Of a stretch of DNA of 64,000 nucleotides, positions 1,441-46,999 are shown one piece after another. The translations under genes and the position numbers were made by a program. The notes beneath the pieces are model-generated. The model was not told the DNA's origin. It saw nothing but the letters and a program-made list of their open reading frames with translations, and did no database searches. This stretch comes from Marasmius tenuissimus. Lineage: Eukaryota > Basidiomycota > Agaricomycetes > Agaricales > Marasmiaceae. How positions within the stretch are numbered: the first letter of the stretch is position 1; every line of letters starts with the position of its first letter. The stretch is from NCBI GenBank assembly GCA_029532415.1, contig JAQOTA010000047.1:186001-250000 (forward strand), in the 5' to 3' direction.

Positions 1441-4400
1441 CTACGCGTCTTTCATCCCCTTATCTCTGGGACTGTGTTTTGGACTCTCTGCGATGTGTTT
1501 GCTCCTCGGCGGACTCACGCTCGGCCTCGAGTCGACCTGCATCGCGTCCCTGTCCCTCTCGCGATCATCAGGATCCTCCGGTAGCGTGGCGATAGGAGGA
1601 AGTGCAAAAGTCCTCCTACCACCTTCCCTCTCCCGTTCTCTGTCCCTGTCACTGTCATTAGAAGTTGCACTGTTCGGACCAGAGTTCAATCCTACAGGCC
1701 GAGGGTGAGGAGGCAACACGCTAACTGGAACACCTGGACCAGGAGGACTTGCGCCCCGGCCCGAAGGTGGCCTTCCACCCTCTCTATCGCGATTGCTGTT
1801 GTACTCCGGCGACCTAGAGGTGGGTTGCTGCCTGAACGGGATCGGGCTAGGACGAGTACTCTGACTCATGGCAGTCGGTGACCTTCGTCCAGAAGAACCA
1901 GGTGACGAGCCTCTCCTCTTCTGCGAAGTCCCGGGGATCTCAATCCGGCTCCTTTTATTCGAATCCGATCCGGGTGTGGGAGCGTCATCCATAAGCCCGG
2001 GGGAGAGAGGTCGCTTCATCGGCATGGGGAGGGAAGGGGTGATGGACGAAGGAGAAGCCATGGTGACGCTACCGTTGCCTCCGCTAAGGCTTCTCGTCGA
2101 CGACACCGAATCTCGATGAGGAAGTCGTGGAGGGCTTCCAGCTCCGTTCGCTGAACCCGAAGAGGTATTGCCGCTGCCGTTTCCGGCAGCCAGGGACATC
2201 AATGTATCTGCAACGCCTTCGTCGTAATCGTCGTCGACTTGTCTGTTTGGAGGTCGAGGGGTTCCCCTGCCACCAGTTGCAGTAGGTGAGGGTCGAGAAG
2301 AACCAGAACCCGATGCCGAAGGGGAAGAGGCCTTGTAGACAGCGCGGAGAGAGGAAGAAGCTGGAGTGCTCGTGACGGACTCGCCATCCTCGTCTCGACG
2401 TTTGCCACCGCTACGCTTCTTGCGTTCTTTCTTCTCCTGAGAAGGAAGTTGAGGAACTGATGTGTCAGACGGGGGCGGTGGGTTGACCTGCGGGCGGCGA
2501 CGTTTCGACATGTTACTCTCCGATATAGGATGAGGGCTTTCCGAAGTTCTTCTGCTGAAGCCAGTCGGCGTTGGGATCTGAGAAGGATGGGAGTGCGGAG
2601 GTGAACCATGAGCATGTGGGTGGGAAGGATGGGGTGAAGGGTGACTGCTATGATGACCAGGTGGGGGAGGTGGAGGAGCAACCATCCTCGAGATACCAGG
2701 GGGGTACTGCGCCTGTTCTCTCGCGTCCCTCACGTCCCTTTCTCTCTCCCTCTCCCTCTCAGCTCTATCCCTCCTTTCCATCTCAAAATCCCCTCTCATC
2801 ATATGATGACTATCATGCCTCGTTGGATCATACCTTCCTCTTTCCCTCTCCCTCACAGGAGGCCCATCCGGACTGCCACCTCGCTTTTGATGAGCTACAG
2901 GTGGGAGCGGGGGCGCCCCACCCGACTGAGTCTCCCAAATCCTTTCCCTCTCTCTCCTCGGCGAAGGCAACGTATCCTCTCTATGACTCACCGCAGGCGA
3001 CCATCCAGCACCTCCCGGATACTCGGGATTCCCATTCGCTCGTCGTCCACGTTCCCAGTCCCTGTCTCTATCGCGTTCGCGCTCACGATCTGAACTAGAA
3101 GTGGGTGGTCGCCATGGACCGTCTTCTGATGGTGGTATCCGTGAGGCGCCGGGAGGTGGAGGAGGTTCGGGATATGAGGCGGAAGATGTGCGAGGGTGCA
3201 AACTTGGAGAACGGGCTAGCAGAGGTGATGGATTCGCATTCGCTCGACTCGATGGTGGGAATCCACCTGTCTGAAAGGGTGGTGGCGGTGGAGGTGGAGA
3301 CCTTCCTCTTGAGTGATGGCTTGAATGAGGGGGGAGATGAGGAGGCAAAGAATGGGAAAGGTGATGAGGCTGGGAGTGATGCGCGGGGGGTAAGGTGGAG
3401 GTGGGAGGTGGGGAGACAGATCGGGCGGGAGATGGTCGCCTTCGGGTGAAGAAAGCATCTGGATGAGAGACAACGCCACGCCCAGGTGGTGGTGGTGGTC
3501 CCCGCTCGTCTGTTGGTGTATGGGTGTGTAGTAGGAGGCTTCGCGGAGGCAAACCTCCGTCTCGTACATCTCTCGCGTCTCGGGCATCTCTGAGGTCACG
3601 GATATCCCTCAAGTCCCGACCGTCCCTATCCTGAGAGTATTCTCGGCTATGACCATGCCGGGGGAGCGGAGGTCGACTGTCGACGTCCATGGGTGCCAAC
3701 GTCTGCACATGCCTTCCTTCATCAATGTTCACAGGTGGAGGTGGTCCACCTCTGAACGGCCCAGGCGGCGACCTCGTATGGCCATTGAGTAGAGGCTGGT
3801 TCGCGGACGGCGGCGGCAATGAAATCTCGTTCGTATTGCCGGGGGGGCCCCTCGAATCCGTCCTGAAGCTCGGGATACCTCCCCTCTGTCCCGGTGTCTG
3901 AAGAAGCAGCGGTGGACCTGAGAGTCCAGGAGGCGGCACGACTGCGCTGGCATACGCCGTGGGATGGACATCCTGGGGACCCGGTGCCGCCGGCAGCTGC
4001 CCACCAGTGGTCTGAGCCTGTTTCAGCAGAATCAACCTTCCACTGATGACTTCGTTGCCGGGATCCAGTTCTGACGCTCTGGCGTAAGCATCAATCGCAT
4101 CTGAAATTTGATTGTTACAGCTCTCGTAAAGTGAGCCCAGGTCAAACCAGACTTCAGAGATGTAAGGATTGATTCTGATCGCGCGAGAGTAGGCATCGAG
4201 AGCATCGCGGAACTGATTGATCTGGAAATAGAGGACGCCAATGGAGCACCAGAAGGTGGGGTTGCGACCATCCCGGTACACAGCCTGTTGATACGCTTCG
4301 TATGCCTTGTTATACTTCTGGCCTGCCATGTAAGCGCGACCGAGGAGGTACCAAGACTGAGCGTCGGAGGAGTCTGGCAACGTCGAGATGTTCAAAAGTG

Positions 4401-18436: not shown

Positions 18437-18883
18437 CTGCCGCAAAGACGAGGTGAGATACCGATGCGTTCAATCTCTGTGTAGAACACTCACCGATTCC
18501 AACGTGGTTGCTTCTTTTCTAATCAACATTTTGAGGAAAAACCATCATCAAATCGCGATGCGTCCAAAATGCGACGGCGACGCGCTGAAATTCGCGTTAG
18601 TCGACTTGTCGTACACGAAGGAAAACGAACAATTACTGACCATTATCAGAACGAAGCTGATGACTACAAGCTGCCAGGGTTCAATAAGATTTTCATCGAC
18701 ATCTTCAACTTGAGCTGGAGGGTTCCTTGGAAGCTGCACATGGCAAGATTGTGAGTATCTGCAACATTTCGATGATAACGGTAATCTGACCTCTTCGACC
18801 ATATCGTTGACCAGAGGAAAACGCTGACTCAAGGGATACGGGTGGTAAGACCTTCTACGACGATATCGAGGAACACAGGGCAT
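18437..18883 (-). CDS. Small single-pass membrane protein, copy A (unknown family)
   Basis: I do not recognise this family. Coding exons 18883-18791, 18733-18641 and 18584-18519 (stop at 18519) give 83 aa with phase-0 introns of 57 and 56 nt. It pairs with copy B at 31.7-32.1 kb. Exon 3 is 66 nt including the stop in both, and both share the motif HPYP-[IL]-x-QRFP in exon 1. The N-terminus is Arg-rich (RYRRRRSYHPYP). Exon 2 is acidic and then hydrophobic (LVVISFVLIM), running into exon 3 (RVAVAFW), so one membrane span sits across the junction. TATAAA lies about 85 bp upstream (18962-18971 region). A further intron of 57 nt (18493-18437) follows the stop by 25 nt, again matched in copy B. The shared gene structure is the evidence that this is a gene; function is unknown. 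Confidence 0.6.
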
Positions 18884-21800
18884 CTTCAGAAGGTGTTGCG
18901 TTGAGGTGAGAAGAACCTGACGGTGATGGTTGAAGTTCAAGAAAAAAAACGCGAATCCGTCCAATTTATAGGCTAAGGCCGTGGGTACAACCAAACAACA
19001 TTCTCGTTTATAAACAATGGGAGTGCACCGGATTACAGCTCGAAGGCTCGAGAGTGCGATGGGAGAATATACGGTTGGTGTTGAGATGATGGATGATCAA
19101 TTCAGTGCACCTTTGGCCCAAAGTCACCCGTTCCGTCGCTGACCATCATCTCCTGTTTCTGGAGAGTGCCAATACCCGCTGATAGCCGCTGCCAATCTTT
19201 GAAGTCTCTGTAAAGCTGCTCAGCGCTGCTCACATCCCTTCTCGTCTTGCTATACGTCCCTCGCTTCGTCCAAGGTGTCCTAAATCTGCTCGCGTGCAAT
19301 CTGTGTATGGAAGCGATCTGCGATTTTGACTTCCCTCGTCTCGTTTAGGCCTGGCGAACACCGTTCACAATAAATCGCTTTCCGCTAGCCTATTCAGGCA
19401 AATTCCAAGCTACCGCTCCTCTGGGCTTCTGGGGTTCGTTTCTGGTCCGCAGAGAACGTCGCAAACAGGTCGTGGTTTTGGTCAAACTTGATGCCTGAAA
19501 GGAGTCGAGCTTTGGTCGCTGTGCTTCATCTCCGATTGGTTCTGGAAGAAGACATCCAGTTCACGATGGCAGGGGATCTGTAAGGCTGTCGCGAGAGAGA
19601 GCTCTCCGTCCTCATCGAGAAGGAAAACACGTGCTAAGCGAGGCACGGAGTGGGGTATGATGACTCGACGCGCTCCCGACGCGCCAGGTCAAGTACATAG
19701 ACCATCAAGGTCGACCTGGATGACTCGCAGATGTTCGTCCTTGGCTTTGACCTTGACTGCGGCATCCAACTGGCCGTGATACGAGCTCTCCTCGTGGTCT
19801 AAGATAACTCGATAACAAAAGTTTCATGCGCCTCGGCATATTCCCCCAAATCTAGCTCCGAGAGCTCCCTCAAGAACAAGACCTCTCTCTGGGCTGCTGG
19901 TTATCCAAGAGCGAAGGATCGTCGTCCCGTCCGGCTCTTTGATTGGACCTCAACCTCGAGGATGGACTTGAGCACCCTTGAGGGGTGTACATCGTTATTC
20001 GACTGGGACCCAGAGAAACACTCGCGGGATGGACCGTGACATCTGAAGGACGCTTCAAGTCGCGTTCTCATGCCGTCTGACGTCTTTGCGTCGGCCCAGG
20101 CCCCAACCACGAAGACGGAGTTCATTATGCATCCCGATGTATTGTGACCCGAGAAAACCACCACCGGATACAGCAGCTTAGAGTGCTTCGAGCCCTGTCC
20201 TTGCATTCTGTACGATGGGATATGGGTTGAAAGACGTGAAGGGCGCTCTGGTTATTGCGGAGTGTCAGCGGAGCTCTATGTTTGGTATTTTGTGGGCGAC
20301 CTGCCGTCACAATGGTATTTTTTCGCGCTTGTATGTCCAACCAAGTGCTGTACAGTACCCTCAAGTCCACCTGTGCCCTTCAACCCGAGAGATTGATATC
20401 GGATGCCAATAATTGCAGCATTCGTACAAGATATGGAGCTGCGAATTTTCAGTTTGTGGCCCCAATTCAGTTCGAGAGACCAACCCAGGAAGACGTACTT
20501 TAGTCCAGTTCAGAAGAAACCTCCGGTGTTCTCTTTCCAGCCTAGACGAGCGCATCGTTATCAAACGGTCTTGATGCTCTTCATTGCTTCACAGTGCTGC
20601 CCGCGTTAAGAATTCTTTCTTAGAGCTGTCCATGGGCATTCTCTCGTCTGAACCTTCGCGTAGGACGTCTTTGACACAACGAGAATGCCGGAGTCGTGTA
20701 TTTGTGGTGGGTCGGCGGTTGATGGTGATGGGGGCACAAACGAGGAGTGAAACAGAGTGAAGCCTTCGCTTAGCGCTAAGGCCTGTCTCCCTCACTCTCT
20801 TCATTGTTTACTCATGTGCCCACCTCTTTTTATTCTTACCACCACCCTCGTTTTCACGTTCTCTTTTTGCAAAAGGATTCTCTTCGTTCACGTTCAAAGA
20901 GCGGCGATAGGAATCGAATAGATCTCCCGGTCAACCCCCGCTGCAATGATTGGAATCAAAATCCCATGAATCTCTACGACCTACTGCAAGTATAGTAAGG
21001 TTTGCTATCACTCATATCGGTCAAAGTCGGCGAAGGTCTACTCTTTGAGAAGCGACAGACGGCTCTGTTGACGGTGAAACTGCGGTGAAAGGTGAGTGAA
21101 GTCTGGACGCTTTCGAAATCAGTGCTAATCAGTGTTGATTGGAACATTTGGTACCATATTATGCCTGCTGTCCAGCAGGTATACCATACACTCAAACTAC
21201 CGTCCGAACTTCTGTTGACTAACAGAGACCAGGAACTTGTTGCTCTTTGCCCGGAAAACATTCAAGTTTCAGACCCAACGAGCCTCAACAAGCTCGCTTC
21301 GTTATGATTTCGAATCAACTATTTCTACGTCTCTCGGAGCGGTTGGATTTGGGTTGGACGTCGATGGATCGCCCTCGATAAAGCTTGCAAGCACAACACT
21401 CCAGGCTCCACTCAAGTCATGGACGCGCTCGGGATGTGCTGCTGTTGTTGATAGGAGCTGGATAATTATCAATGAGGGAGTTATCGTTGCAGTCTGCTAC
21501 CTGCTTGGCAAGGAATGACCCAGAAGTCCCAAAACGTTGAAGTTTGCTAGGTCCTGGTCATTGGTGTAGGATCGAGATAATGGCATAGTAGGCTAGATAC
21601 CGAGTAGCTATAGGTCCTCGAGAACGTGAATTTGAGAGATAGATAATCCCGAAACAAGAAGGCTTTCACCACTGGACTAATGAAGCAACGGTATGCGTGT
21701 GTAGAATCTATGAGAATAAGCTTTTTAAATTACAATGACCTTGAGGTTTGACTCGGAACTCCAGCTTCGCTTGAGGTTTGCCATTTACCATCATCCTCCC

Positions 21801-23926
21801 TGGCGCTCTCCGAGACTACAAACCTCGACAATGAACAGAAACAACAATCAACATAGTCATTGTCATCGCTGGAGGCAAGTTCGCTATACGGAGCTAGGAG
21901 GATTTTGCTCATGAGGCGCACTTCGGAAGTTTTTGGGGCGAAATCTTGATTGGAACATCACCCATGGCGTCCTGACACATACACGTTAGCTAGGGCGGAG
22001 CAATGAGCCTACTATGTGCGTTACTTTCTTCATCGACCGCTCACTAGTTTTTTGACCATCCAGATTCGCAAACAGCCCGGACTTGCGGCAGTCTCAAGTT
22101 GAAGGACATCTGGTCGACTCAGTCCACTGTCCAACGCCGGCAAACATGCTATATGGGCAACCTATAGAACAGAATCTCACACTGGCACATCGCGGGAAGC
22201 TAAAAGAAAACAACTCCGACGACATACGGGGTTTTCAGCCAGAGAATCCCCGCGTAATGACCCCAGAAGCCCTCGACCCTCCCAAACATTCTCTATCGCT
22301 CGCTGCAAGCTTGGTGAGTCACCGAGCTATTTGCTGGTTGGGGGAACGTTGATGAATGTGACAGGACGGAAAATCGTAACACAGTCTTGAGGTTTGCAGG
22401 TTACCAAGATCCCCATACTGGCCGCAATCAAAGTCACCTCGCCTCGTTTGTGCGAAGGCAGTCGCTATCAAGGCTATTAGCGAGCATTTCTCCCATGCGA
22501 GCGGAGAGACGGTCAATCACGAATCACCATCTCTGCGCGGGGAACCCCTCGACTTGTGAAGTCGCCAGAGTCGCCCATACGTTGCCTGTGTTGGCAATGA
22601 CCGGCTTATCCACATCGCCGCGGGTCACCGATCGCCACAGGCTCTCTTCCAAGAGCAGCATGGCTCAGGCACCTCCATTGCTGCTACCACCTTGATCACT
22701 CGCGAAGACGCCGTCGCCTTCTAAGGTTGGGAACAGTATCTCTAAGTGTCGAAAGCTCCTGCGATGGTGATGGGACACTGGCAATGACACTTTGTGCTTG
22801 GTTAGCTGTCCTGTCTCTCAACTCCATGGTGAACTCGGACTTTCGGTTGCTTGAAGAGGGCCTGGAGACGCTTCCCATGAGGCTCTTGAGGTTCTCTTGC
22901 AGTTGGGTTGCTAGCACGCAGGTACACGGGTCACATTGCAGGTCTTTTATGACACTTGTATCACGACAAGCAGGAACTTTGGTCATTCTTCCGCTCGAGA
23001 TGTGCTCCGTGCCAGTCAGACTCTTTGTCGACGCGTTCAGTCGCGTCGTCGCTTCCGAGCGGTCACGTGCCCGATTCCGTTTTCGGTCATTCCCAACTAT
23101 CTAGCGAGCAATCGCTTCTGGCAGCACAGGCGGCACCAGGACATCTTCAAGTCGTCTTTCCGGTCGTTGAGAGCGTTTCTGGGGCGGTTTGGACGACAGA
23201 TACTCCTTGTACTCTGTCAGGCCTCAGTCAGTTGAACCTCCGCAACGTTCAGCACGACTGAGCTGGCCAGCTCAGTCGGGCGACTATCAAAGAAGGATCT
23301 AGTTTCTTCTTCCCAAGCTTCCATCTTCACTCTTTCGCAACGTATACTGGCCAGGGAGGGTGTGGCACCAGTACTGGGACAAGTGAAACTAGGTGTCGCG
23401 TCCAATCTTGATTGTGCAGACCTGCCTTCCAGCGGGACAGTTGCCGTGTCGAGACCAATCTTGGACCTCCTCAATGTACTCCTACTATTCTGGATGGGCC
23501 ACAACAGTCGGCGGGTGACCGAATTCCGGATTGTAGAGGGCTTCAGGCATCCAGGTGTGCGTCGTTGGGTTGGGTCAATTCAAGTCTTGACTTGAATTTT
23601 CGGACCTTGTAATGGATGAGCAGTTGATTATGTCCGTGTTCGTTAAATCTTGACGTTCACGGGAGGCGTTGTTGTTCGGAGAAGTCCTGGAAGTCAGGAA
23701 AGATGACAGTGCGGGGTAGGTCGCGACTGAATAGCGACTTACTTAACAATGCAGCACCGGCGATCTTCCTCGGGCAAAGATGCACCCCTCGCATCTTGTC
23801 GGCTCCCTGCCCCAGCGAACATTAAAACTGCGACGACTTTGTGGTCCCGCTGCCCTGCTCTATAAATGGTGGTTCGGGTTCTTGTTGCGTCTTCTTTGAC
23901 ACCACCACCATCAGCACTTGGTCGCT
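18884..23926. other. Diverged duplicated spacer (unit 1)
   Basis: No confident gene. Stretches at about 19.62-20.1 kb match 32.83-33.3 kb in the same order. Examples are AGGAAAACACGTGC (19621 and 32835) and ATGACTCGACGCGC (19660 and 32882). In the latter, 26 of 27 bases match over 19660-19686. Between 20.2 and 23.8 kb open frames are short and conflict between strands, including 22.7-23.1 kb on both strands. Confidence 0.5.
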
Positions 23927-24307
23927 ATGAGTAAATCAAACTCCGGTAGCTTTCGCGAACGTACACCTCCCTCGAATCAGAGCCATAGAGCTGCAGCTCG
24001 GCTCTACACTACTCGTCAACCAGCTGTCCTCCCCCCAATTGATCCTCCCAGTCGTAACGTTTGTCATCGTATTCTTTCACTTTTCCCAGTTAACTCAAGA
24101 TTTTCTCTAGCGTTTCACGAACGGTGATGAAGCCAAACAGGTCGGTGCTCAACTCCAGCATCAGCTCATCACCACTGCGATCTCTTTTGTGCTGCTGGTT
24201 AGAGTGTTCTGCCAACTTTTTTCACCCATCCAACTGACGTGGTTTTGTAGTACGGTTCCATCTCCGTCTTTTTCGGCTGGATGGCATGGTCTATCCTGAA
24301 ACAGTGA
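23927..24307 (+). CDS. Small single-pass membrane protein, copy C (unknown family)
   Basis: Family not recognised. Exons 23927-24058, 24111-24197 and 24251-24307 give 91 aa, with two phase-0 introns of 52 and 53 nt. The layout equals that of copies A and B: a basic, Pro- and Ser-rich exon 1 (SHRAAARLYTTRQP), a charged exon 2 ending in a hydrophobic run (ITTAISFVLL), and a short exon 3 that completes the span (YGSISVFFGWMAWSILKQ). TATAAAT stands at 23861-23867, about 60 bp before the ATG. Sequence similarity to A and B is weak outside the hydrophobic part (ISFVL is shared with A), so homology is inferred from structure. A degraded counterpart lies at 34.8-35.3 kb. Location and role are unknown; topology suggests an endomembrane or plasma-membrane protein with a basic tail. 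Confidence 0.5.
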
Positions 24308-26105
24308 TGTCTCAGAAACTATCGTTGTCGTCGGTGCAATGCCAATGTCTCTGTCTATATTGTGTTGGTGCGCCCCTCTTCGTCTTGCCCTTCGCCACCT
24401 CGTCTGACTTTGTTGTAGATGTACCCACCACCTATCTCCTTGACATCTCACAAGTCGCTTCGTTTTCCAGAAAGAAGAGTTACACATCGTTACTTTTTTG
24501 TTTTTGATCATCAGCTGCGGATGACGAACCTATTTCCCTCTCATGACGCGACAAGCTTTGACTCTTTTCGCTCACACGATTTGTCGTTCGAGCTAGCCAT
24601 CGATCGCAGGTCCGCCACCTCCATGTAACTCGTTCCTGCCAAAAATTATGGATTCGGGGCTTAGTCCTCCCTCTTTGCCTCATAGTATCATTACCACACA
24701 GTCCTTAGCGAAAGTATATTTACCCACGCAGCTGTCGAGCAACGTGTAATTGCTGTTTAGTTCCCCCGGACCTCTTCGGAGTTGTGTCGAACGAAAGGTG
24801 GGTCCGTGGCGTGACCCGATGTATTTTGTAACTCGGAATTCTTTTCGCAGATGCGAAGCAATCGCGAAGTTGAATGAAAGCCGCGCCGTGTATCAGACAG
24901 CATAGTGATTACTCGATTCACGAGTATAACATACGCACGTCGTGTATGGCTAAGTATGTGGGAGATCCGGACCTCTGGGTTTCTGGGAGCACGGTTACTC
25001 GAGAACATCAGAGTTATGCTTAACATTTGGAAAGACCTGAGCTTTGCCGTTCCGAAGGCGGTGATAGATTCTCCGACTTCAAGAAGCGTAGTCATTCTCC
25101 CTCGCCCATATTTCCTTATGATGTTTTGGATACGTAAAATTTATTTGAATGTTCGTTTTTTCGTCATGTCGAGAAATTCAGCACCAGAGGTTCCAAAGCC
25201 ACCACCCACGCCAGTTAATGCTCATACCTTTTCATGGATAGGCGAGTCTACCAACTATCCCAATTCTGTGCCCGCTGCTCCCAAGGCAAAGTGTGGACCT
25301 GCGCTCTCAGTTCTTCCCCTTCTCCAGCAAACCTATCCGGGAAGGTCTGTCAAGGAAGATCGCCGAATGTACAACACAATGATGAATAGGAATCAGAGCC
25401 CACCGGAAAAGCAACCCTCATCTCTATCCACGCAAATACATTATTTTTTCCTTCCTCCCCCTCATCAGGATGAACCCGCATCACTGGACAGTCTTTCGCG
25501 AGCCCAAAGAACGCCCGACAGAGTGAAACCAACTCTGCATCAAGGTGACAGTGCCTCAAGAGTAAGGACTGTACGATGTTCAGAAAGGTCGCTCCCAACC
25601 TATTGATGATTTTCTCGTCTTTGACACCAGTCTGTGCAAAATCCTCAAAAAGGGAGATGAATGTCTCGAAAAGCTGCATACAAGCTTTCTGGTATGCAAG
25701 GTGCCCCGGATCCTGCGACCCATCCGCCACAGAGAGATCACAGCGGCAGTCTGTGAGGCACACACACGGGGCACCAAGCAGAATTTCACGGCTGTGAAAC
25801 TGGATTCGGGAACTATAAAGATCAACCGGCCTGGTAAATCAACTCTTTCCCATCCAGTAAAGGTATACCTCAACAAAGGAAGTGGCTGAGGTTTTGCGAT
25901 TGCCAGCTTTATGAATTCACTAAGGCATATCTTACAGATAATGTAACGTTAGCAATTTTGATTCCCGACCGATAATTTCTTTTGTGTTTCCACAATGCCC
26001 GTTTATAAGGCAGCGTATTGGCCCCCAAAGGCGCGGAACGGTACTTAAATAGGCATACATTACCATATATGACCATCGCTAAGGGCCGGAGCCCCACCCC
26101 GTGAG
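24308..26105. other. Unresolved open frames and left arm of a long inverted repeat
   Basis: 24.3-24.8 kb matches 35.0-35.4 kb (second duplication unit). From 25350 to 25889 both strands are open. Minus carries 137 codons (25763-25350) that would form amphipathic helices (FETFISLFEDFAQTG). Plus carries about 105 codons ending at 25889 (KILKKGDECLEKLHTSF, then RGTKQNFTAVKLDSGT). A relic gene is likely, but I cannot decide its strand. The stretch from about 25769 onward is one arm of the inverted repeat described separately. Confidence 0.4.
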
Positions 26106-26342
26106 CGGGCATTGTGTTTCCACAAAATAATTATCGAACGGGAATCAAACTTGTAATCGCTGCAGAATATGTAGGATACACCTTCGTGAATCCATCAAGT
26201 TAGCAATCGCGAAACCTTGATCTTTGCTTTCACTAGAGTGTACCTTTACAGAATGAGAATGAGGTGATCAATCGGCCCAATTAACCTTTACAGTTCCCAA
26301 ATCCAGTTTCACGAGTGTAAAATCCTGGTTGGTGCCCCGTGA
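25769..26342. repeat. Long diverged inverted repeat (arms about 235 bp, loop about 100 bp)
   Basis: The plus strand of 25769-26004 aligns with the reverse complement of 26105-26342 along its whole length, at roughly 70-80 percent identity by eye. Anchors include CCAGTTTCAC, GGGGCACCA, GCGATTGC, TTTGATTCCCG and the inner CACAATGCCCG / CGGGCATTGTG. The inner ends are better matched than the middle. The right arm begins 170 bp past the stop of the NLR gene, so it is the 3' flank of that gene. Origin could be an inverted gene-fragment duplication or an old foldback element. Confidence 0.7.
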
Positions 26343-26510
26343 CATTATCAACATCGCGAAATGGCGGCCGTACCAGCAGTCCGTTAGGACGATAGCGACT
26401 TGTGGCATAGTGGACAGTCCAATGGACCACATCCTTCTGTGGAGACACGCCCTGTGGGTATTCGAGATGAAAACACTCCGGGCGGTTCTGAAACTTATAC
26501 ACGAGACCCT

Positions 26511-28627
26511 CTACAAGACCAAGTCTCTTCCCTTTGTTACTTGTAATGTGACTGGAAGCTCGCATCGGCCGTTGCTGTCAGATGGATGGTATCCGTTGGC
26601 CGCGAGGTGGGTGTCTTCGCCAGCATTCTCATATTTTCTACTTTCCTCCTTGACCTTGTCATCACTGGTCCCAGGGTCGTGCTGGTGACGGGAAAGTGTA
26701 AGTACATAAGTACAGAAGCAGGCTCGTCGTAGGGTAAACTTACATATTCCCTCACCCACGGTACTAGGTCCTTGAACATTTCTTCCCTTGGCCATTTCCG
26801 GTCGATCCGGTTCACCAGATATGCGGAGGCGAGGTCAACTTTCGACAGATCGTCCAATAACTCCTGCGTCGGTTTGGGTATTGACGTACAAAGCTCAATC
26901 CACCTCGTGAAGAAATCCCTGGTTTCCTTACCGTAAAGCTGGTTGTAGCTACGAATATGAAAGGTAAGATTTGATATTCGGGTGAGAGTGAAAGAAGGTG
27001 GATGACTCCGCACCTGTAAGTCCGCACTTTACTAGCCGTAAGGTTCTGGAGCCACTTTCGCGCGATGTCATGTGTCTGGGTGGGGATGTCGACGTAGGAG
27101 TGGCCCGACCTAGTCCAGTTGACCAGATATTCAATAAATGATGTGTGGTGCACACGTATTTCCGATTCGCGGCCACGAATGCTCAGCACGGAGTGCATTC
27201 TTCGTAATCTCAAAGCCACTTGTCCCGAGGCCAGCCCATACAATAGCTCAATGCCTGCTGGAGTTGGCAGGAGATAGTTTGGAAGGATGAGAATTGCAGC
27301 GAGAATGCGGAGAACTTCTCCGGGGTTGGGATTGGTTTCGAGGATGATATGATATAGTCTATCGAGCTCATGATAGGGCGATGCCCCTGGCTGATTGCTA
27401 GGAGAACCCTCGAGGATAAGGCGAAGTTGATCCATGGGAAGATTGTCTGCGAGCGTTATAAAGCCGACGGCGGTCGACGCGTAGATGAATTGGCTGCAAG
27501 ACTTATGAACCAGGGCTTCGAGCTCTTCCTCTGCAGGCCAGGGACTCGGGAACTGGACTTGTTTATACTTGGGACTGCTGACGGCCTCCCGGAATTGGTG
27601 GCGATAGTATTTCATGATGTCTTCAGCAGCTCCGAAGTGATCATTCAACAGGATGACCTTCGAGAGTTTAGAGAGCGGGCCAGCGGCGAACGCTTCCTGA
27701 AGCCAAGCTTCGGGACGACTGCAGATCAAGAAGCGCAATGGAAAATGAGGCAAGTTGTGAAACGCGGATTGGATCATGGAAAGAATGCGCAACTGGGTTC
27801 GCTCGTCGCCACATTCATCGAGACCATCGATGAGGACCAAGTTGGGAACCCCTGTTTGGTTGCGGCCTCCCTGCTGGGCCCTGTCCTCTTTCTTCGCGAA
27901 GGAAAGCTTCTCGGAGAACTTCCGTATACGCCCTGACCATCTCTTGTGTAGCGATAGTTTTAGTGCTTTCTGGAGCGGACGAAGTGGGGTGAGTGGAAGA
28001 AGTGTGGGAGGGAGTAGAGCAACTGGCGTACGTATGGTTCGATGACAAGTTCCCGGAATTGTTCCTCCATTCGAGCTTCCAGTATCGTCGGGTTGTCCAA
28101 AATCCTCTGATTGATAGAGACTCGGCAGGAAGTAAATTTGACGACAAGACCATGTGCAATGGAGAGCACGAGAGCTGAGGAGTTGTTCCGTTTGGGGTCG
28201 GATCGAAAGAAAAAGAACGAGGAAACCAGGCGGCCTTCCTGTTCAAAAGCTTTGGCGACGGTCGACACCTGCAGTTCCCGAGAGCCAGCAAACAGGAAAC
28301 TCGTTTCCCTTCAAGGCCAGGATCCACTCCCAAATCATCCTGATGACTTCCTCACGAGTTCCCTCAAGGCACTCCCCACGTTCGTATTGTTGCTCCGCAT
28401 TATGCGAGGCACCGACGCCCGCAACTGCATCCCAGAGAGTTTTGTGTGCTGTATCAACACATTTGAGTCTACCTTCTTGCTTGACGAAATCGAAGAACAA
28501 GCGACTCACGATAGGGGCCTGCTGTGTTGAAGGTATTTATAAAATTGTTGATCTGAGTGCCAGCAGCGTTGTTGTTGTTCTGCACCCCCGACCCATTGTT
28601 TTCGTTTCGTACCACCGTATGTGCCAT
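26511..28627 (-). pseudogene. NACHT-domain NLR (STAND NTPase), P-loop destroyed
   Basis: Fungal NLR-like signalling NTPase, a class linked to non-self recognition and regulated cell death. Five exons: 28627-28510, 28448-28032, 27969-27014, 26948-26744 and 26681-26511. The order is a short Asn/Gly-rich lead (MAHTVVRNENNGSGVQNNNN), the block DAVAGVGASHNAEQQYERGE, the NACHT domain, a winged-helix-like region (RVHHTSFIEYLVNW) and a charged tail. Walker B is clear (VLIDGLDECGD). In Walker A the sequence reads WLSGTAGV and then shifts frame (about 28256-28272). The Gly-Lys-Ser is missing and the frame resumes as STVAKAFEQEG. The assembled exons total 1867 nt, 8 short of an intact frame, which is what loss of the P-loop codons predicts. 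There is no WD40, ankyrin or TPR array. Unless this is an assembly error, the gene cannot make an active NTPase. It lies between membrane-protein copy C and the F-box gene and is absent from unit 2. Confidence 0.85.
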
Positions 28628-29190
28628 GAACAGGCCCAGGGTGTCGAGTGCACCAAGCAGACAGGTATTTCAAAATTTGCGTTCGGCGGAATGAACTGGA
28701 TTATAAATGTAGAAGGTGTGCAGCAGGGAGGAAAGGGACAGAGGATGGATATTGGATGGAAAGCTGCAACGTTGGCGAACCTCGAGTGGTAGCTTTCCGG
28801 GCTGAGTCTGGGACTGTAAACACACGGCGTGACGGTGTGTATTTAGTGCGCAGATGGATTCTGGAGAGGATCTCAACCTGTTGTTATTTCCCTCGGGGTC
28901 TAGGCGGACTCTCACGGCTGCCAACCTCCAGTGGTAGCAGTTGTGAACATGAGGGGTTTCTGGGAGTCGCATTGTACGTCGATAATATTATTGTGATGGA
29001 TCGCAACGTGAAATCGAGTCCTGACATTGACAATCAATTGCCTTTGACCTCCAGCCGACCTTCAGCTGAAGTGAAGGGCGAGAAACATGACGCGTCGCGT
29101 CGCGCGGGACTCGGACCGGGAGTCGGGACAAATGCCTCGGCCACTCGTGAGACCAACCGCCATCATCTCAGAAAACTTTGGCGCGGTAGC
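28628..29190. promoter_or_regulatory. Divergent spacer between NLR and F-box relic
   Basis: About 560 bp between the NLR start (minus) and the F-box start (plus). The 100 bp before the F-box start contains ACGCGTCGCGTCGCG. A related CGTCGCGACGCG occurs at a similar place before the intact paralogue (about 35520). No gene is supported. Confidence 0.45.
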
Positions 29191-31153
29191 ATGGTTCAGG
29201 TATGCAACCAGCCGCTGCTTCTTTTTGTTTTGACTCAATTACCCTATTACTCTTAGACTGGCTTCAACACGTTCGAACAATTCATGGTCGGCCTGGCTTG
29301 GCCCGACACCAGGATAGAGATGGAGGTTACTTCTCTCTGCAGCGAATGCCATCGCTCTTGGTTTTCGCCCGTGATCCCAGTTCCTAAACAACATATCCTT
29401 CAATTTGACCACATTCCCTCCTCTATCGAATTCGATCATATTCTGTCAGAGCTTCGCGAGGAAGAATCAGAGCTGGAAGCATTGGACAAAGAAGTTGCTC
29501 GTCCGGAGGTTACTCTTTTTCGGATGCGGACTGCGAGGACCTGGTTGCTGGATCGTATGAGGCAGAGGAAATCCGTCATATCTGTGATTCGAAGGGCACC
29601 CGTTGAGATCTGGGATATGATCTTCAAGACGGCCAATTCGATGATGAAGTTCTCGTTGGACTGACTATTCGATCACGGAACGCAGGAAGACACCTTCCAT
29701 GTCATTTCCCCATATTCTTTCTTGGGTGTGTAGGGACTGGCAAAGGATAGTGGACACTATTCCTGTGATTTGGTCCTCCATTCGGATAGCACAGATTGTC
29801 CACCTGAAAACCGACATCCGTCCGTTGCTCATGGAGTACCTATCAAAGTCATCCGGACATTCTTTGAAAATATCCATCCTGGAGGAAAACTCCCAGTATT
29901 ATGCCTTCCCACAAGATCAGGACTTTTGGCACCCCGAGAAGACTCTGAGCCCCCTGCAGCAGGACGTCTTTCTCTACTTGATGAGGAAAGCTGCCGTACG
30001 GTGTCAAGAACTCGAATTTCGTCTCCGAAAACACGCGATTCCATTCAACCCTTCCGAAGTTATCGAGTTCCCCATTTTGCGCTCCCTCCGTACAGACGTA
30101 ACCGCAGAATCTTCAGGAAATACGTATGGCTGGTTATGCAAGATACTCAAACCAGCTCCACGTCTTACTTGCCTGTCGACACACACCTTTCCGTACCTCC
30201 GCGACAACCCGTACAAGGCAAATCTAACGGTTTTGGAAATCAATGACGGTAGTTATCACAACCTCCCAGGTTTACTACGCGTTTGCAAACGCCTGCGATC
30301 ATTAGTGGTCAATAGGCTTCGCCTATCCAGCCGCAGCAACAACAACTTGGCCGAAATCGAGGTACCACATCTCCGAACATTGCATTTGAGCATCATCGAA
30401 GACCCTTCCCGCATGGCTACCTTCTTCGACCGCCTAAAAGCCACATCACTCGCAGACCTCAGGCTTACCTTCAGTTGTCAGTCGATCTACGACGACTCAA
30501 TTCGTTGGCCTCAGACATCGCTTGTTCAGATGTTGAAGCGACACGCGAGCTCTATAACGAGACTCACATTAGAGGTTCTTCGGCCTGAGGCGGACCCAAT
30601 GCCGGAGGAGCTTTCTTTGTCGGAGATTGTACAGGCCGTGCCCAGGTTAACATATCTGAAGTTGGGCCTGGAGATATTCGAGGATAGCGATCTCGAGCTA
30701 GCTCTCCGATGTATGTCTGCTCTCAAGTACCAGCAACCGGGCCCACAACACAAGGAGGTACTCCGGGGATTGGAGGTGGCCATTGTGCACTTCCAAGGTG
30801 GCGCGCAACTATCAAACAGGAGAGCCCAAGCGGTCGCAAAACGACTCCTAGAGGTGGCGGAATCGCGGACAAGGGATCGCCTGGAGGGCGTGCAGGGTGT
30901 GGTGCCCTTGTCGACCATGTGTGTCGCGTTAGGTGACATGGACGACGAGGACTGTTTTGGCACAGACTCAGAGAGGTGGTCCGACACGGATAGCGAAACG
31001 GAGGATGCGGGCGAAAACCTACCGTCATGGAGTGCTCTAGTGAGCAGTCGGGCTATAACGGGACGAGCGAGAGCCGTAGAAAAAGCAGGGGTTCGGTGTT
31101 TCTTTGGGAAATGGAAAGACTTCGAGAGCATGGCGAATTGTCGCCCGATATGA
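29191..31153 (+). pseudogene. F-box protein with coiled coil, copy 1, frameshifted
   Basis: Paralogue of the intact gene at 35.6-37.6 kb and collinear with it throughout. A 9-nt first exon (29191-29199, Met-Val-Gln) is spliced over a 57-nt intron to 29257. The first part matches the paralogue: SLCSECHRSW, the coiled coil ILSELREEESELEALDKEV, then the F-box start VIRRAPVEIWDMIFK. At 29659-29666 a tandem GACTGACT shifts the frame and brings TGA at 29662-29664. One GACT fewer would join L-D to Y-S-I-T-E-R, as in the paralogue. From 29663 the second frame runs open to 31153 with the LRR-like remainder. An alternative, a 37-nt intron ending at the AG just before GAAGACACC, would also restore frame, but it would be unusually short and would remove conserved residues. 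F-box proteins feed substrates to SCF ubiquitin ligases. Confidence 0.8.
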
Positions 31154-31632
31154 CTGTAGTAATTTCATACATGGAATGCTTATGTTGATGCTGGAGAGAC
31201 CGTTTCTCAGCGCGTCGGTGCCTATCACTTCTAACATCCGAGCTCAATCGAGCATGAACATGAACAAGGATTCCGTGTTAATTCCGATTTCATCGGCCGT
31301 TAGACGGTCAAGCGATGTTCCACAACGCGACTCAAGAAGGTAGGCGAAGTCTTTTAAGACCCAGAGGTAGCATATGAACATTGGGTGGCAAACTGGTACG
31401 ATAGTAGATTTGGGTGTATAGTATAAGTGGCGCGTGGCTTTTCGCAACATGAACTGGACCAATTAGTCCACGTAGTGCAGCAAGCGCGTTGACAAGAAGA
31501 TGGCAGTAAAAATACAGGGACAGGCGAGTGCTGAAGCGCTGAGCGATGGTCAAGCAAAGTGTAGTGTACATTAGCGACGAGACGAAAGGGTATCAGTGTT
31601 CCCCCGTGAACCACGAAGACGATGAGGAGCTT
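31154..31632. other. Short spacer between F-box relic and copy B
   Basis: About 480 bp. The right part (31.44-31.63 kb) aligns with the sequence downstream of copy A (18.2-18.4 kb), both read on minus, for example around GTACACTA. It may hold the last untranslated exon of copy B. No separate gene is supported. Confidence 0.45.
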
Positions 31633-32069
31633 CTGCAAGCCAACGGTGAGATGTCGTGAAAGATTCACAATGGCAAGTAAGTACTCACTTTTGGAGAGTG
31701 TGTTAATCCTTCAGGCAGCATTCTCTGTCAAAGCCCGGATTGCATTTCCATGAAGAAAGATGGCGACGAACAGACGCTGACCATCGCGTGAAATGAGACG
31801 AAGCTGCTAGGAATGATGGACCTTACCAGTACCAAAAGCAGGACGATGAACATATACTCGCGAAGGTTGATAGCCGCCCCAAGGACATCGTCTGCTTGAA
31901 TGGGCTCAGGAAGGGGATCGGCGTCCTGAAAAAGAAGAAGGTTGAAGATGATTCAATACACAACTTGCACAAGACTCACGTCTACGGGAGGGAATCGTTG
32001 GTGGATGGGGTATGGGTGAGGCCTTCGCTGTCGACGTGCTGCAAGTCTGGAGGTTGTAGATGGAGCCAT
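31633..32069 (-). CDS. Small single-pass membrane protein, copy B (unknown family)
   Basis: Family not recognised. Coding exons 32069-31980, 31925-31827 and 31776-31711 (stop at 31711) give 84 aa, with phase-0 introns of 54 and 50 nt. The N-terminus is basic (RLAARRQRRPHPYP) and shares HPYPIHQRFP with HPYPLSQRFP of copy A. Exon 2 turns acidic (DADPLPEPIQADD) and then hydrophobic (YMFIVLLLVL). Exon 3 continues the span (RLFVAIFLHGN) and is exactly as long as in copy A. TATAAA lies about 75 bp upstream, near 32147. An intron of 56 nt (31688-31633) begins 22 nt after the stop, as in copy A. Conservation of exon lengths, phases and motif after visible divergence argues for selection on the protein. 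No function can be assigned. Confidence 0.65.
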
Positions 32070-34760
32070 GAGGGAGCGCGTCGAGACTGAAGAGCCTCTG
32101 TCGTGATGGTGGTTTGGAAGAAAGAAGTGGTACCAGACCACTCAATTTATAAAGGAAACGTAGAGAAAACAAGCGTGGGTACGACCAAATAGAAAAGCCT
32201 GTGGAAGACAGATACCAACTTTCACCCAAGAGACAGGAGGCAGGGAATGTAGCGAAGGTGGAAGGGCATAGATGCTTATCAAGGTAATGACTATGGGGAT
32301 CGCGATTCAGGATGCTCTGACCCAAATTCATTCCATTGCTTCGCTCAGCCTTCATCTACAACAAGGCAGCAAGGCGAAACCCCACTGCCACCCCATCCCC
32401 ATCCCTGTTGTCGTCTTGCGCGGTCTCTGACACTTCTCTCCATCCTCCAACACCAATGTACCACGGAAACCATCACTTGAAGATGTTTCTTGCTTGTGCA
32501 CGACATTCGATTCCTGGGTCAAGATAGAGTCGGCTGCTGGGGCCTTGGTGGATGCTCCGTGGATGTACTGCTGGTTGTTGCATCCCTACTAGCTCAGCAA
32601 GAGTCTTGGTGTCGCCGGAACGTTGTCGTGGTCGGAGATGATACAGGAAGATACCCATCGAGTTCTCGTGGTTTGTCCTGGTTATGGACCTTCCATGGTT
32701 CAACTTTTACTTCGGTTCTCCTGCGACGACTGTTGGTAGAGTTTCTGGAGCTGTCTGGGTACGATGAAGGCGCTGTGTACGCTGAACCGGGCCTCTTCAC
32801 TGCGAAAAAGCCATTGGTCGGGAGCCGCCCGAAAAGGAAAACACGTGCCCTACGCGCGGGAGCGAGCCCGGTCAATGTACAATGACTCGACGCGCCCCCG
32901 ACGCGCCACATGCCCAGGGCCGGGGTTGGCCTTTGACTGGTGACCCCGCCCGCGTATGACTTGAAACTCTTCGTTCTTGACTATGGCCTTGACAGCTAAT
33001 GCCACTGGTGGGATATCGAGTCCTCGAAAAGTGAGATAGGCGTCCAGATTGACAAACTCAAGACTTCTGTGTGCCGGCGTGACCCCCCAAGTCTAGTTTC
33101 CAGAACTTTTCCAAGAGCAGGGCGATCGTAGTGACCTCAAGACAAAAGCCGGCCTTCCAACGTGAGCTGTGAAGCCAATCCTGAGCGTCGAAGACGGCCT
33201 TGCACACCCTCGAGGGGTGGATACGACTCGTCGCGGGCAGTCCTGGATGGAGACCTCTAACACCTCAAGGGTGCTTCGAGTCGCATCTTTTTTCGGGCCT
33301 TCACCATTGTCTTTGCCACCGGACTATCGTCGAAGATGCCAGGGAGCAGCAAGGAAGAGACAAAATTGTCTGTTCCATTTTTGGGTGCCCTGGGCGGTCA
33401 ATGGATGTTGTCCTTTCCTAGTCGTTCTAAAGGACCCTAGGTAGAGCCCTCTAGTCTGATTGATGCCACAGAGCTCGGTGTAGTGTGAACGCGCCAACAT
33501 GAACTACTTATGGGCCTGCAAATTTGTGATCAGACTTCAAGATTCCAGCGACGACTTCAAGACGAGAACGCACCGCATTCCAACCATAAGGCTCAGTGAA
33601 AGCTTCTTCATCATCTCTAGAGTGCATCCCAAATTCCTCGTCGACCTCTGTCTGATGAGATATGGCCCTGGTGTTGACAATCCTGCTGGTCAACCTCGTT
33701 GAGGTGAAAGAACGGTCCGTCGTACTTGGTTAGCAGTTTCGTGCCTAGATTCACAGTAGAAAGTTGTCGAGAGTACCAAAAGAGCATCGAGCTGTGTGCC
33801 GGGGAATGAGCACCGGCGATGTCACTGTGTGCTTGCTGATGATGGGGGTTACAATTGAAAGAGCTGAGTCTCATTGTTGAATGTTCCTCCTTCCCACCAT
33901 TGGACCTCATTGTTTCGTTCCTCCACCGCCCAAATGCCAAATATTGACGCAGTCTTATTCCTTTCTTTTCTCTCTTCATCACTCCCTCATCAAGTGCCGA
34001 TCCGCGTTCAGGAATATAATGCGCGCCTACATCGTTAAATCACCAACAAGGATGTAGTCCAAGCAATGTCGTCGACTCCGAACCTGAGTTCTGCAGGCCT
34101 CCGCAAGTCACAGTCAAGCTCATCTATGCTAGGACACTACCATAGGAGTCGCAGAAAGCTTCTGAACGGTCGAAATGCTGGACGACGTGGGGCGACGAGG
34201 TGAGTGATCCGTAACCTTAAGGCTTGTTACTGGCTCACTGGGTTGCCGAAGTTCTGACTCTCTCAGGGCCATCGGCTGATAGGACGTGTTCATCCAGGTT
34301 CAGTCTGACTCTCTGACAGTCATAGGGTATCGTGGTACAGAAGAATTGGGTGTAGTGGCAACTGGAGTCTCTCTGAGCCTTCCCATCCGGTAACAACGAA
34401 TGTTCGCAATGCATCACCCAAAGAATCTTGGCATGGGGATGGACTACATACCTAGCTCAAGGCAAGATTTGAATTGGGTTGAGAGTCCCAGTGCGTCGGT
34501 GAGTCCAAGACGTCCAACCGACAGTATGCGAGGTCAACTGAAACGCTTCTTTTGTATGATTGTGGCACCGATGTTGCGCTTGACTGGCGGGGACCGTCGA
34601 TACTCAAAAAGTGAAAACCTGTGTACTCAAATGACCCTTGCAATGGCCGTCACCTCAAATCAAGGTCCCCATCTCATACTTCGCATGACCCCAAACAGTA
34701 CATCATGCAGGTCAATCTCAGCACCGACCATGGACGAAAACGCTCCTCTGCGCTCTCTTG
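32070..34760. other. Diverged duplicated spacer (unit 2)
   Basis: No confident gene. 32.83-33.3 kb matches 19.62-20.1 kb (see unit 1). Short open frames on both strands near 32.5-32.9 kb overlap and have no domain. 33.5-34.7 kb shows nothing I can support. Confidence 0.5.
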
Positions 34761-45929: not shown

Positions 45930-46999
45930 GCATTGGCGGTGAGACTGCCTGGCTTCTGAGATTGGGCTAGGCTTTCATTAGGACAGTTACATGATCAGTG
46001 ATATGTCGAGGGCTGAATGACAGAACGTCGAACCTTATTCACGCGACTGAAGATTGATTCAGTTCCCTCCCGCCAGTCGAGCGTCTATGTTCTTACTTGA
46101 GTAAAAGTGAAGTTTTGCTTCCCGTGCCAAATTATGGATTTAGCCGACATCCGAACCCGTTGTTGTTCGTACCCGCGGGTTTTCCGATAGTCTTTCTTCC
46201 CGTTTCGGGATGCGTATTGATACTTTGTACTATGGAAAGGTCAAAGCGGTCGAAACACAAAGCACGCGCAGTAAGCTTAGTCACCTTCATGCCCGAAGAG
46301 AACAATGTCCACCAGAATGACTGAATATCGACGTAGATTTAAACCTTGGTTAAGGGCCTCAGAAACGACAGGTACGCGACTTTGGGCCAACTTGGGAGTT
46401 GCAGGGTCGCAAAGTATACCCAACATCCTGGGGTCCTGATCGCTCGGCGACAAGACAACGACAACATGTGTAGGCTTGAGGCTAGTGAGCGATGTCCTCG
46501 TTGCCATTCAGTCTAGAGGTTGGACGATAATTGTAATGAGAGAAAGAGGTCGAGGCTGTAATCGAGATGGGAACTTGGTTGTTTTGCATCAATCGATGCA
46601 TGGAAAGAAACCATCAGTGTATCGCGATTCGCTCGGCCTGTCAAAAATCGCTCTTAGCCTGAACGGACAAGACTCAAGGCAAAAAGCTGTTTCACTCGGC
46701 CAAAGCCAGCTGGTACCCTCGTTGTCAGTTAACCTGATCCTCTCACTGGGAAGACAATGGCTGGCCTCAGACACAGCCTCTGGCGTTGCAGTTGGTGGTG
46801 AGTTGAAAAGGGAGATGGGCGCTTGGCGGACAATAAGAACATGCCGAGGAAGGCTTTTGATTGTTACATAAGCAGAGATAATAGCCGTAGGCAGCTTTAA
46901 ATAATTACCTCCCTTACGATTGCCTCTCCACTTGCTTGCTCCTCCACTCTGTGATTTTTTCTCTTCCAACTTTCTCCAGGGACTTCCAACTTTGCACCC
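45930..46999. other. Intergenic region
   Basis: About 1.1 kb. Minus-strand frames at 46277-46507 and 46589-46969 lack domains and splice continuity. The last 100 bp is the promoter of the secreted-protein gene. Confidence 0.5.

What the first reader, a model, noticed from the sequence alone, without database searches (positions are those of the whole stretch)
18437..32069. A previously unnamed family of tiny single-pass membrane proteins with a rigid three-exon design
Copies A (18519-18883, minus) and B (31711-32069, minus) are diverged but share a basic N-terminus, the motif HPYP-[IL]-x-QRFP and two phase-0 introns. They also share a third exon of exactly 66 nt and one membrane span placed across the exon 2/3 junction. 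Copy C (23927-24307, plus) has the same design with weaker sequence similarity. All have TATAAA 55-90 bp upstream. Keeping exon lengths and frame through this much divergence suggests selection. They occur within 14 kb of an NLR and two F-box genes. I know of no described family with this pattern.
Basis: partly seen in the sequence, partly recalled or inferred. Interest (0 to 1): 0.75.

Follow-up and report, generated by a model that had tools for sequence, protein, structure and literature searches.

The report
Orphan small membrane-protein family in Marasmius
A mushroom of a cacao-disease group carries a cluster of tiny, so far unnamed genes, apparently for membrane proteins, that share exon layout and a motif; several look preserved by selection, but what they do is unknown.

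Summary
Copies A and B are as described, and the family is larger. The contig is Marasmius tenuissimus. B is deposited exactly as joined here (PM082_013904). The genome holds seven HPYP-type copies (A, B, D, E, F, G, H; G decayed) and an exon 2-3 fragment at two near-identical places; five homologues are annotated in Marasmius sp. AFHP31. A is homologous to the B clade (43 bits, 0 of 5000 shuffles). All seven have two phase-0 introns and a GTGAGT 22-29 nt after the stop, a probable 3'-UTR intron. A 17-base promoter box, taken from the copies, has three exact matches in 71 Mb, at A, D and H. 'Exactly 66 nt' holds for A, B, D, H only. C is supported by a paralogue (I), but both have a 57-nt third exon and no significant similarity to the HPYP family. 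Codon constraint is shown for B-D, E-F and C-I, not for A. Best reading: genus-restricted, tail-anchored-like microproteins with an invariant arginine in the membrane helix, probably acting through a membrane partner (inferred). No transcript evidence was available.

The parts
18980..18995 (-). promoter box TTTGGTTGTACCCACG of copy A
   Evidence: exact; the 17-base form GTTTGGTYNTACCCACG has 3 exact matches in 71 Mb, upstream of A, D and H
18791..18883 (-). copy A exon 1 (93 nt; basic N-terminus, HPYPLSQRFP)
18641..18733 (-). copy A exon 2 (93 nt; first half of the hydrophobic segment)
18519..18584 (-). copy A exon 3 (66 nt incl. stop; begins with the invariant Arg codon)
18437..18493 (-). copy A putative 3'-UTR intron (57 nt; acceptor chosen by hand)
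   Evidence: GTGAGT lies 22-29 nt after the stop in 7 of 7 HPYP copies
32174..32189 (-). promoter box TTTGGTCGTACCCACG of copy B
31980..32069 (-). copy B exon 1 (90 nt; RRQRRPHPYPIHQRFP)
   Evidence: deposited protein PM082_013904 is identical to the joined exons
31827..31925 (-). copy B exon 2 (99 nt)
31711..31776 (-). copy B exon 3 (66 nt incl. stop; begins with the codon of Arg64)
31633..31688 (-). copy B putative 3'-UTR intron (56 nt; acceptor chosen by hand)
23927..24058 (+). copy C exon 1 (132 nt); C belongs to a separate C/I gene pair
24111..24197 (+). copy C exon 2 (87 nt)
   Evidence: exon 1/2 junction agrees with deposited PM082_013900
24251..24307 (+). copy C exon 3 (57 nt incl. stop); the deposited model ends differently
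   Evidence: same 57 nt in paralogue I
18960..24724 (.). block with C and the upstream region of A; inverted duplicate of C23:173.2-179.4 kb, which holds I and the upstream region of H (coding exons of A and H lie just beyond the last match)
   Evidence: six separate blastn matches of 65-77% identity
29699..31153 (+). F-box-like ORF (weak match) convergent with B, 557 bases between the two genes; the pair is duplicated with D

Best explanation
A real gene family, seen so far only in Marasmius, of 79-96-residue tail-anchored-like membrane microproteins. Shown: two phase-0 introns; a promoter box intact in A, B, D and H and diverged in E, F and G; a splice-donor-like site just after the stop; a basic HPYP/QRFP head; one C-terminal hydrophobic helix with an invariant Arg near its middle (Arg64 in B) and an invariant His at its end. 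Shown: local, partly inverted segmental duplication; codon-level constraint in B-D, E-F and C-I. Inferred: the protein is inserted after translation with the head in the cytosol and a C-terminal tail of 11-14 residues beyond the membrane; the buried Arg pairs with an acidic residue of a polytopic partner or with another copy, and the Pro/Arg-rich head regulates or tethers that partner. My odds: family about 0.95, single membrane-spanning helix about 0.8 for the B type and 0.6 for A/H, partner mechanism about 0.3; the figure below is for the reading as a whole.
For: Homologues in two species. Deposited proteins for B, E, F and H equal my joined exons letter for letter. A and H in the family: 0 of 5000 shuffles each. 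Third-position excess: B-D P=0.0016, E-F 0.035, C-I 0.016, B-F 0.00022, D-F 0.00009; NG86 dN/dS 0.13-0.31 for these. Promoter box: 3 exact matches genome-wide, all at members, reversed control 0 (the pattern was drawn from the copies, so the informative part is that nothing else matches). GTGAGT 22-29 nt after the stop in 7 of 7 HPYP copies. R64 and H72 invariant in 11 of 11 rows, G left out. AlphaFold2 on nine deposited proteins: helix 41-83, mean pLDDT 90-91 for residues 51-70. Best 19-residue hydrophobic window is C-terminal and spans the exon 2/3 junction in 9 of 9 copies; no N-terminal 12-residue window exceeds 0.94 on the Kyte-Doolittle scale (G), 0.29 among the intact HPYP copies.
Against: No transcript, protein or localisation data. 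AlphaFold confidence outside the helix is low (mean 66.7, pTM 0.32; residues 1-50 at 54-61). Constraint is not shown for A (A-H P=0.23, A-G P=0.41). Nothing identifies a partner. M. infestans models came from ab initio prediction with protein evidence (PMC11053350, passage); how the M. tenuissimus models were made is unknown to me, so agreement is not proof of splicing.
Confidence: 0.45

Rival explanations
1. The small genes work as a pair with the convergent F-box-like genes: the microprotein anchors, or is a substrate of, the F-box protein's ubiquitin ligase at a membrane.
For: B, D and G each lie tail-to-tail with an F-box-like gene, about 560-630 bases from the small gene's stop to the end of the match; B+neighbour and D+neighbour are an inverted 4-kb duplicate (71.6% over 4081 bases).
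Against: Only 3 of 7 HPYP copies have such a neighbour in the stretches searched (144 kb of C23, 10 kb around F; tblastn E<=1e-4). These genes form a local array of their own, so joint duplication suffices, and their F-box domain is below Pfam's cut-off.
Confidence: 0.12
2. Self-oligomerising small membrane peptides that harm cells (for example in spore killing or incompatibility), which would fit small size, turnover and clustering.
For: Single-helix proteins, local duplication, decay (G; the exon 2-3 fragment), seen only in Marasmius.
Against: The B/D, E and F types each have relatives in a second species (of the groupings with M. infestans proteins only the B/D one is well supported), with constraint between paralogues; I saw no antidote-like partner, though I did not search for one systematically.
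Confidence: 0.08
3. A (and perhaps C) is duplicated DNA whose frame is kept by chance; only the B/E/F lineage is functional.
For: No third-position excess in A-H (P=0.23) or A-G (P=0.41); no deposited protein equal to A among the hits.
Against: A keeps intron phases, splice sites, promoter box, HPYP/QRFP, Arg and His at 35% identity to B; its relative H is deposited as a gene; C-I has third-position excess (P=0.016).
Confidence: 0.15
4. A membrane-surface (amphipathic) helix rather than a membrane-spanning one.
For: Invariant central Arg and terminal His; positive insertion sums for A and H; predicted helix of 43 residues is longer than a membrane span.
Against: B, D, E and F segments are strongly hydrophobic on both sides of the Arg (best 19-residue means 2.55-3.14). 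No helical-moment analysis was made.
Confidence: 0.2

Closest known systems
Tail-anchored membrane proteins (general class; recalled)
   Same: single C-terminal hydrophobic helix, short C-terminal tail, no N-terminal hydrophobic stretch
   Different: no Pfam match at E<=1 for five proteins scanned and no PDB match; invariant Arg inside the helix; topology untested
Basidiomycete mating pheromone precursors (recalled)
   Same: tiny multi-copy genes of mushroom fungi
   Different: none of 14 C-termini (nine copies, five M. infestans proteins) has a Cys fourth from the end, so no CaaX box; have a C-terminal hydrophobic helix
Fungal small secreted proteins (defined by a signal peptide in PMC7105643; only the start of its abstract seen)
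   Same: short proteins of orphan genes
   Different: no strongly hydrophobic N-terminal window; no signal-peptide predictor was run
Deposited hypothetical proteins of M. tenuissimus and Marasmius sp. AFHP31
   Same: the same family: PM082_013904, _013894, _013861, AAF712_009855 and five PQX77 proteins
   Different: no domain or descriptive name is shown for them in those calls

Membership tests
HPYP family (defined here by the B clade): copies A and H | whole-protein profile similarity beyond composition | tested here: met
   A 43.3 and H 35.9 bits, 0 of 5000 shuffles each
HPYP family: copies C and I | whole-protein profile similarity beyond composition | tested here: not met
   C 2.5 bits, 636 of 5000; I 5.5 bits, 227 of 5000; with A and H in the profile C 142 and I 200 of 5000. 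Against this, the C/I profile scores B at 7.1 bits with 16 of 5000, but G 82, F 339, H 1149, A 1485 of 5000
HPYP family: copies C and I | two phase-0 introns and a hydrophobic segment across the exon 2/3 junction | tested here: met
   third exon 57 nt
HPYP family: copy C | promoter box and GTGAGT after the stop | tested here: not met
   no box within 3 mismatches near C; no GTRAGT in 220 bases after the stop of C or I
HPYP family: copy G | HPYP/QRFP head | tested here: not met
   exon 1 is 42 nt without the motif; kin of A by DNA (E 5.7e-25; 63%); A-G dN/dS 0.72-1.02
Tail-anchored proteins | one hydrophobic helix near the C-terminus, none at the N-terminus | tested here: met
Tail-anchored proteins | post-translational insertion with cytosolic N-terminus | not testable with these tools
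   needs localisation and topology experiments
Mating pheromone precursors | C-terminal CaaX box | tested here: not met
   C-termini of nine copies and five M. infestans proteins
Any named Pfam family | score at curated cut-off | tested here: not met
   0 families at E<=1 for P0001, P0005, P0009, A and C, the five family proteins given

The most novel reading that the evidence does not exclude
A Marasmius-specific class of tail-anchored microproteins whose invariant intramembrane Arg docks them on a membrane partner while a co-duplicated convergent F-box-like gene controls their turnover, with C/I as a second, sequence-unrelated set that has converged on the same exon-and-membrane design.
Probability: 0.07. 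Interest if true: 0.75.

Novelty: new member of a known kind. Interest (0 to 1): 0.38.

Why it matters
Tiny multi-intron genes are easily missed: of nine copies in this genome, deposited proteins identical to my models turned up for four (B, E, F, H), a differently ended one for C, and none for A, D and I (G was not itself a query). The family is a clear case of a genus-restricted membrane protein whose gene architecture is kept while sequence drifts, useful for studying how orphan genes arise, duplicate and decay.

Tried and rejected
Rejected: pheromone precursor (no CaaX ending); secreted protein (no strongly hydrophobic N-terminal window; no signal-peptide program was run); one A+B+C family. 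A mobile element is disfavoured, because copies lie in duplicated segments that reach into flanks and neighbouring genes, but element ends were not looked for. Weak hits at C10:4774887 (E 1.87) and C69:205855 (E 4.78) were taken as chance; the first was only printed, the second not examined. The hits at C10:169599 and C46:39969 (E 0.001 and 0.002) proved to be an exon 2-3 fragment with no HPYP exon 1 in front. No fold search was run, since one low-confidence helix would match too much. YN00 failed on A-H, C-I, A-B, H-B and D-F. Paper searches: rows listed were 6 of 7, 10 of 10, 1 of 2, 10 of 11 and 10 of 96; none of the listed titles and abstract starts concerns this family. They cover open-licence PMC papers only, and only passages of PMC11053350 were read.
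Full report
Source. The window is contig C23:186001-250000 of a 71,056,785-base genome. The deposited protein identical to B is on a contig of the same length as C23 (3,800,625) and is named hypothetical protein PM082_013904, Marasmius tenuissimus. PMC11053350 (passages read) gives 71,059,514 bases for the Ghanaian isolate GHA37, so the genome is probably that one; the paper calls that isolate Marasmius sp. 1 or M. aff. tenuissimus. M. tenuissimus is named as a cause of cacao thread blight (PMC8581569, start of abstract). Marasmius sp. AFHP31, the other species in the hits, is M. infestans in PMC11053350.

Gene models. Reading and a script give A 93/93/66 nt, B 90/99/66, C 132/87/57, with GT-AG phase-0 introns of 50-57 nt. 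Further copies: D C23:151364-151724 (+), E C23:111101-110708 (-), F C24:270897-271275 (+), G C23:169850-170147 (+), H C23:179487-179845 (+), and C's paralogue I C23:174032-173646 (-) (ends partly counted by eye). Exon 3 is 66 nt in A, B, D, H; 72 in E, F; 54 in G; 57 in C, I. Deposited proteins equal my models for B (P0001), F (P0005), E (P0006) and H (P0009); none of the ten fetched proteins equals A, D, G or I. A and D were in the query and I in that; G was in no protein query. Deposited C (P0010, PM082_013900, 124 aa) has the same exon 1/2 junction but leaves exon 3 after YGSIS by another splice; the GT that this needs in C reads AT at the matching place in I, so the 57-nt ending is preferred.

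More than chance. The clade-B profile finds A (43.3 bits) and H (35.9) with 0 of 5000 exon-wise shuffles as good, and the A/H profile finds B (46.7 bits, 0 of 5000). C (636 of 5000), I (227) and G (331) do not pass; G is kin of A by DNA (E 5.7e-25; 63%). GTTTGGTYNTACCCACG has 3 exact matches in the genome and 0 in the reversed control; they are upstream of D, H and A. The pattern was drawn from these copies, so the new information is that nothing else matches. B has the box but for its first base; E, F and G have diverged forms. In the window, up to 3 mismatches, the only other match is at 46162 with 3 mismatches, as chance predicts (0.76 expected), and C has none. TATAAA stands at the usual place in A, B, C, D, E, H and I; G has TATAAG and F none; an ACCA leader is aligned in all nine. 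GTGAGT lies 22-29 nt after the stop in 7 of 7 HPYP copies; with acceptors chosen by hand the putative 3'-UTR introns are 49-67 nt; C and I lack GTRAGT there. Close copies such as B and D could keep these features by recent ancestry alone; A and H against B, at 35 and 34% identity, are the informative comparison.

Selection. Differences by codon position: B-D 7/9/22, E-F 18/16/28, C-I 23/17/34, B-F 19/18/42, D-F 24/16/46, with third-position excess (uncorrected P 0.035 to 0.00009; pairs overlap); A-G 23/25/26 and A-H 37/29/39 without (P 0.41, 0.23). NG86 dN/dS: B-D 0.25, E-F 0.31, C-I 0.25, B-F 0.13, D-F 0.13, B-E 0.18, H-B 0.10, A-B 0.35, A-H 0.44, A-G 0.72; other methods give up to 0.48 for B-D, 0.43 for E-F, 0.39 for C-I and 1.02 for A-G; dS is saturated for A-B, A-H and H-B. 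In B-D, E-F and C-I identity of introns and flanks (0.64-0.78) is near that of third positions (0.63-0.74), while first and second positions are at 0.75-0.92. Constraint is thus shown for B/D, E/F and C/I and not for A itself.

Range. Protein searches of 5.8 billion sequences found only the two Marasmius species: 4 hits among 5 candidates, 9 among 4733, 1 among 12 for C/I, all at E<=10. In the tree of 11 rows B, D, P0002 and P0003 form a starred group, as do A and H (long branches; A of deviating composition); E with P0007 has 87/71, and F, P0004 and P0008 are unresolved. Absence elsewhere is weak evidence: such genes are often unannotated, and no other fungal genome could be searched by DNA.

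History. Six inverted blastn matches link window 18960-24724 (C and the upstream region of A) with C23:173.2-179.4 kb (I and the upstream region of H); the coding exons of A and H lie just beyond. B plus its convergent F-box-like gene matches D plus its own (71.6% over 4081 bases); G also faces one; no other HPYP copy does in the stretches searched; E and F share 2.9 kb at 66%. An exon 2-3 fragment without an HPYP exon 1 lies at C10:169599 and C46:39969; the two 3132-base loci agree at 3127 positions.

Protein. The best 19-residue hydrophobic window is C-terminal and spans the exon 2/3 junction in 9 of 9 copies; insertion sums (scale recalled) favour a span in B, D, E, F, G and I, are near zero in C and positive in A and H. 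Invariant in 11 HPYP rows (G left out): M1, R12, R13, H18, Y20, P21, R25, I57, L61, R64, H72. R64 is near the middle of the hydrophobic segment and is the first codon of exon 3. AlphaFold2 gives one helix 41-83, confident only around 51-70. No Pfam match for five proteins, no PDB match.

Mechanism. Tail-anchored-like insertion and pairing of the buried Arg with a partner are inferred from this anatomy and were not tested.

Noticed in passing
G000:C10:169599-169730 (-) and C46:39969-40100 (-), L033/L034: An H-like exon 2-3 fragment (exon 3 reads RVAVAIMIQHDLVQEENTA) behind what looks like a WD40-type remnant (label from memory, no family scan), at two almost identical places.
   Followed up: partly
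G000:C23:155558-155943 (L016) and C23:143439-143824 (L020): A 386-base imperfect palindrome, 89% identical between the two places; at the first it sits between two matching parts of an F-box-like gene. Looks like a small inverted-repeat element.
   Followed up: no
window 25765-26341: Imperfect inverted repeat with arms of 104 and 94 nt, each 77% complementary.
   Followed up: partly
G000:C23:164422-165181 (L021): Overlapping self-matches at a shift of about 298 bases, up to 83% identity: a diverged tandem repeat.
   Followed up: no
window 23927-24307: Deposited model PM082_013900 ends with a different splice than the 57-nt exon 3 shared with paralogue I; probably a prediction error.
   Followed up: partly
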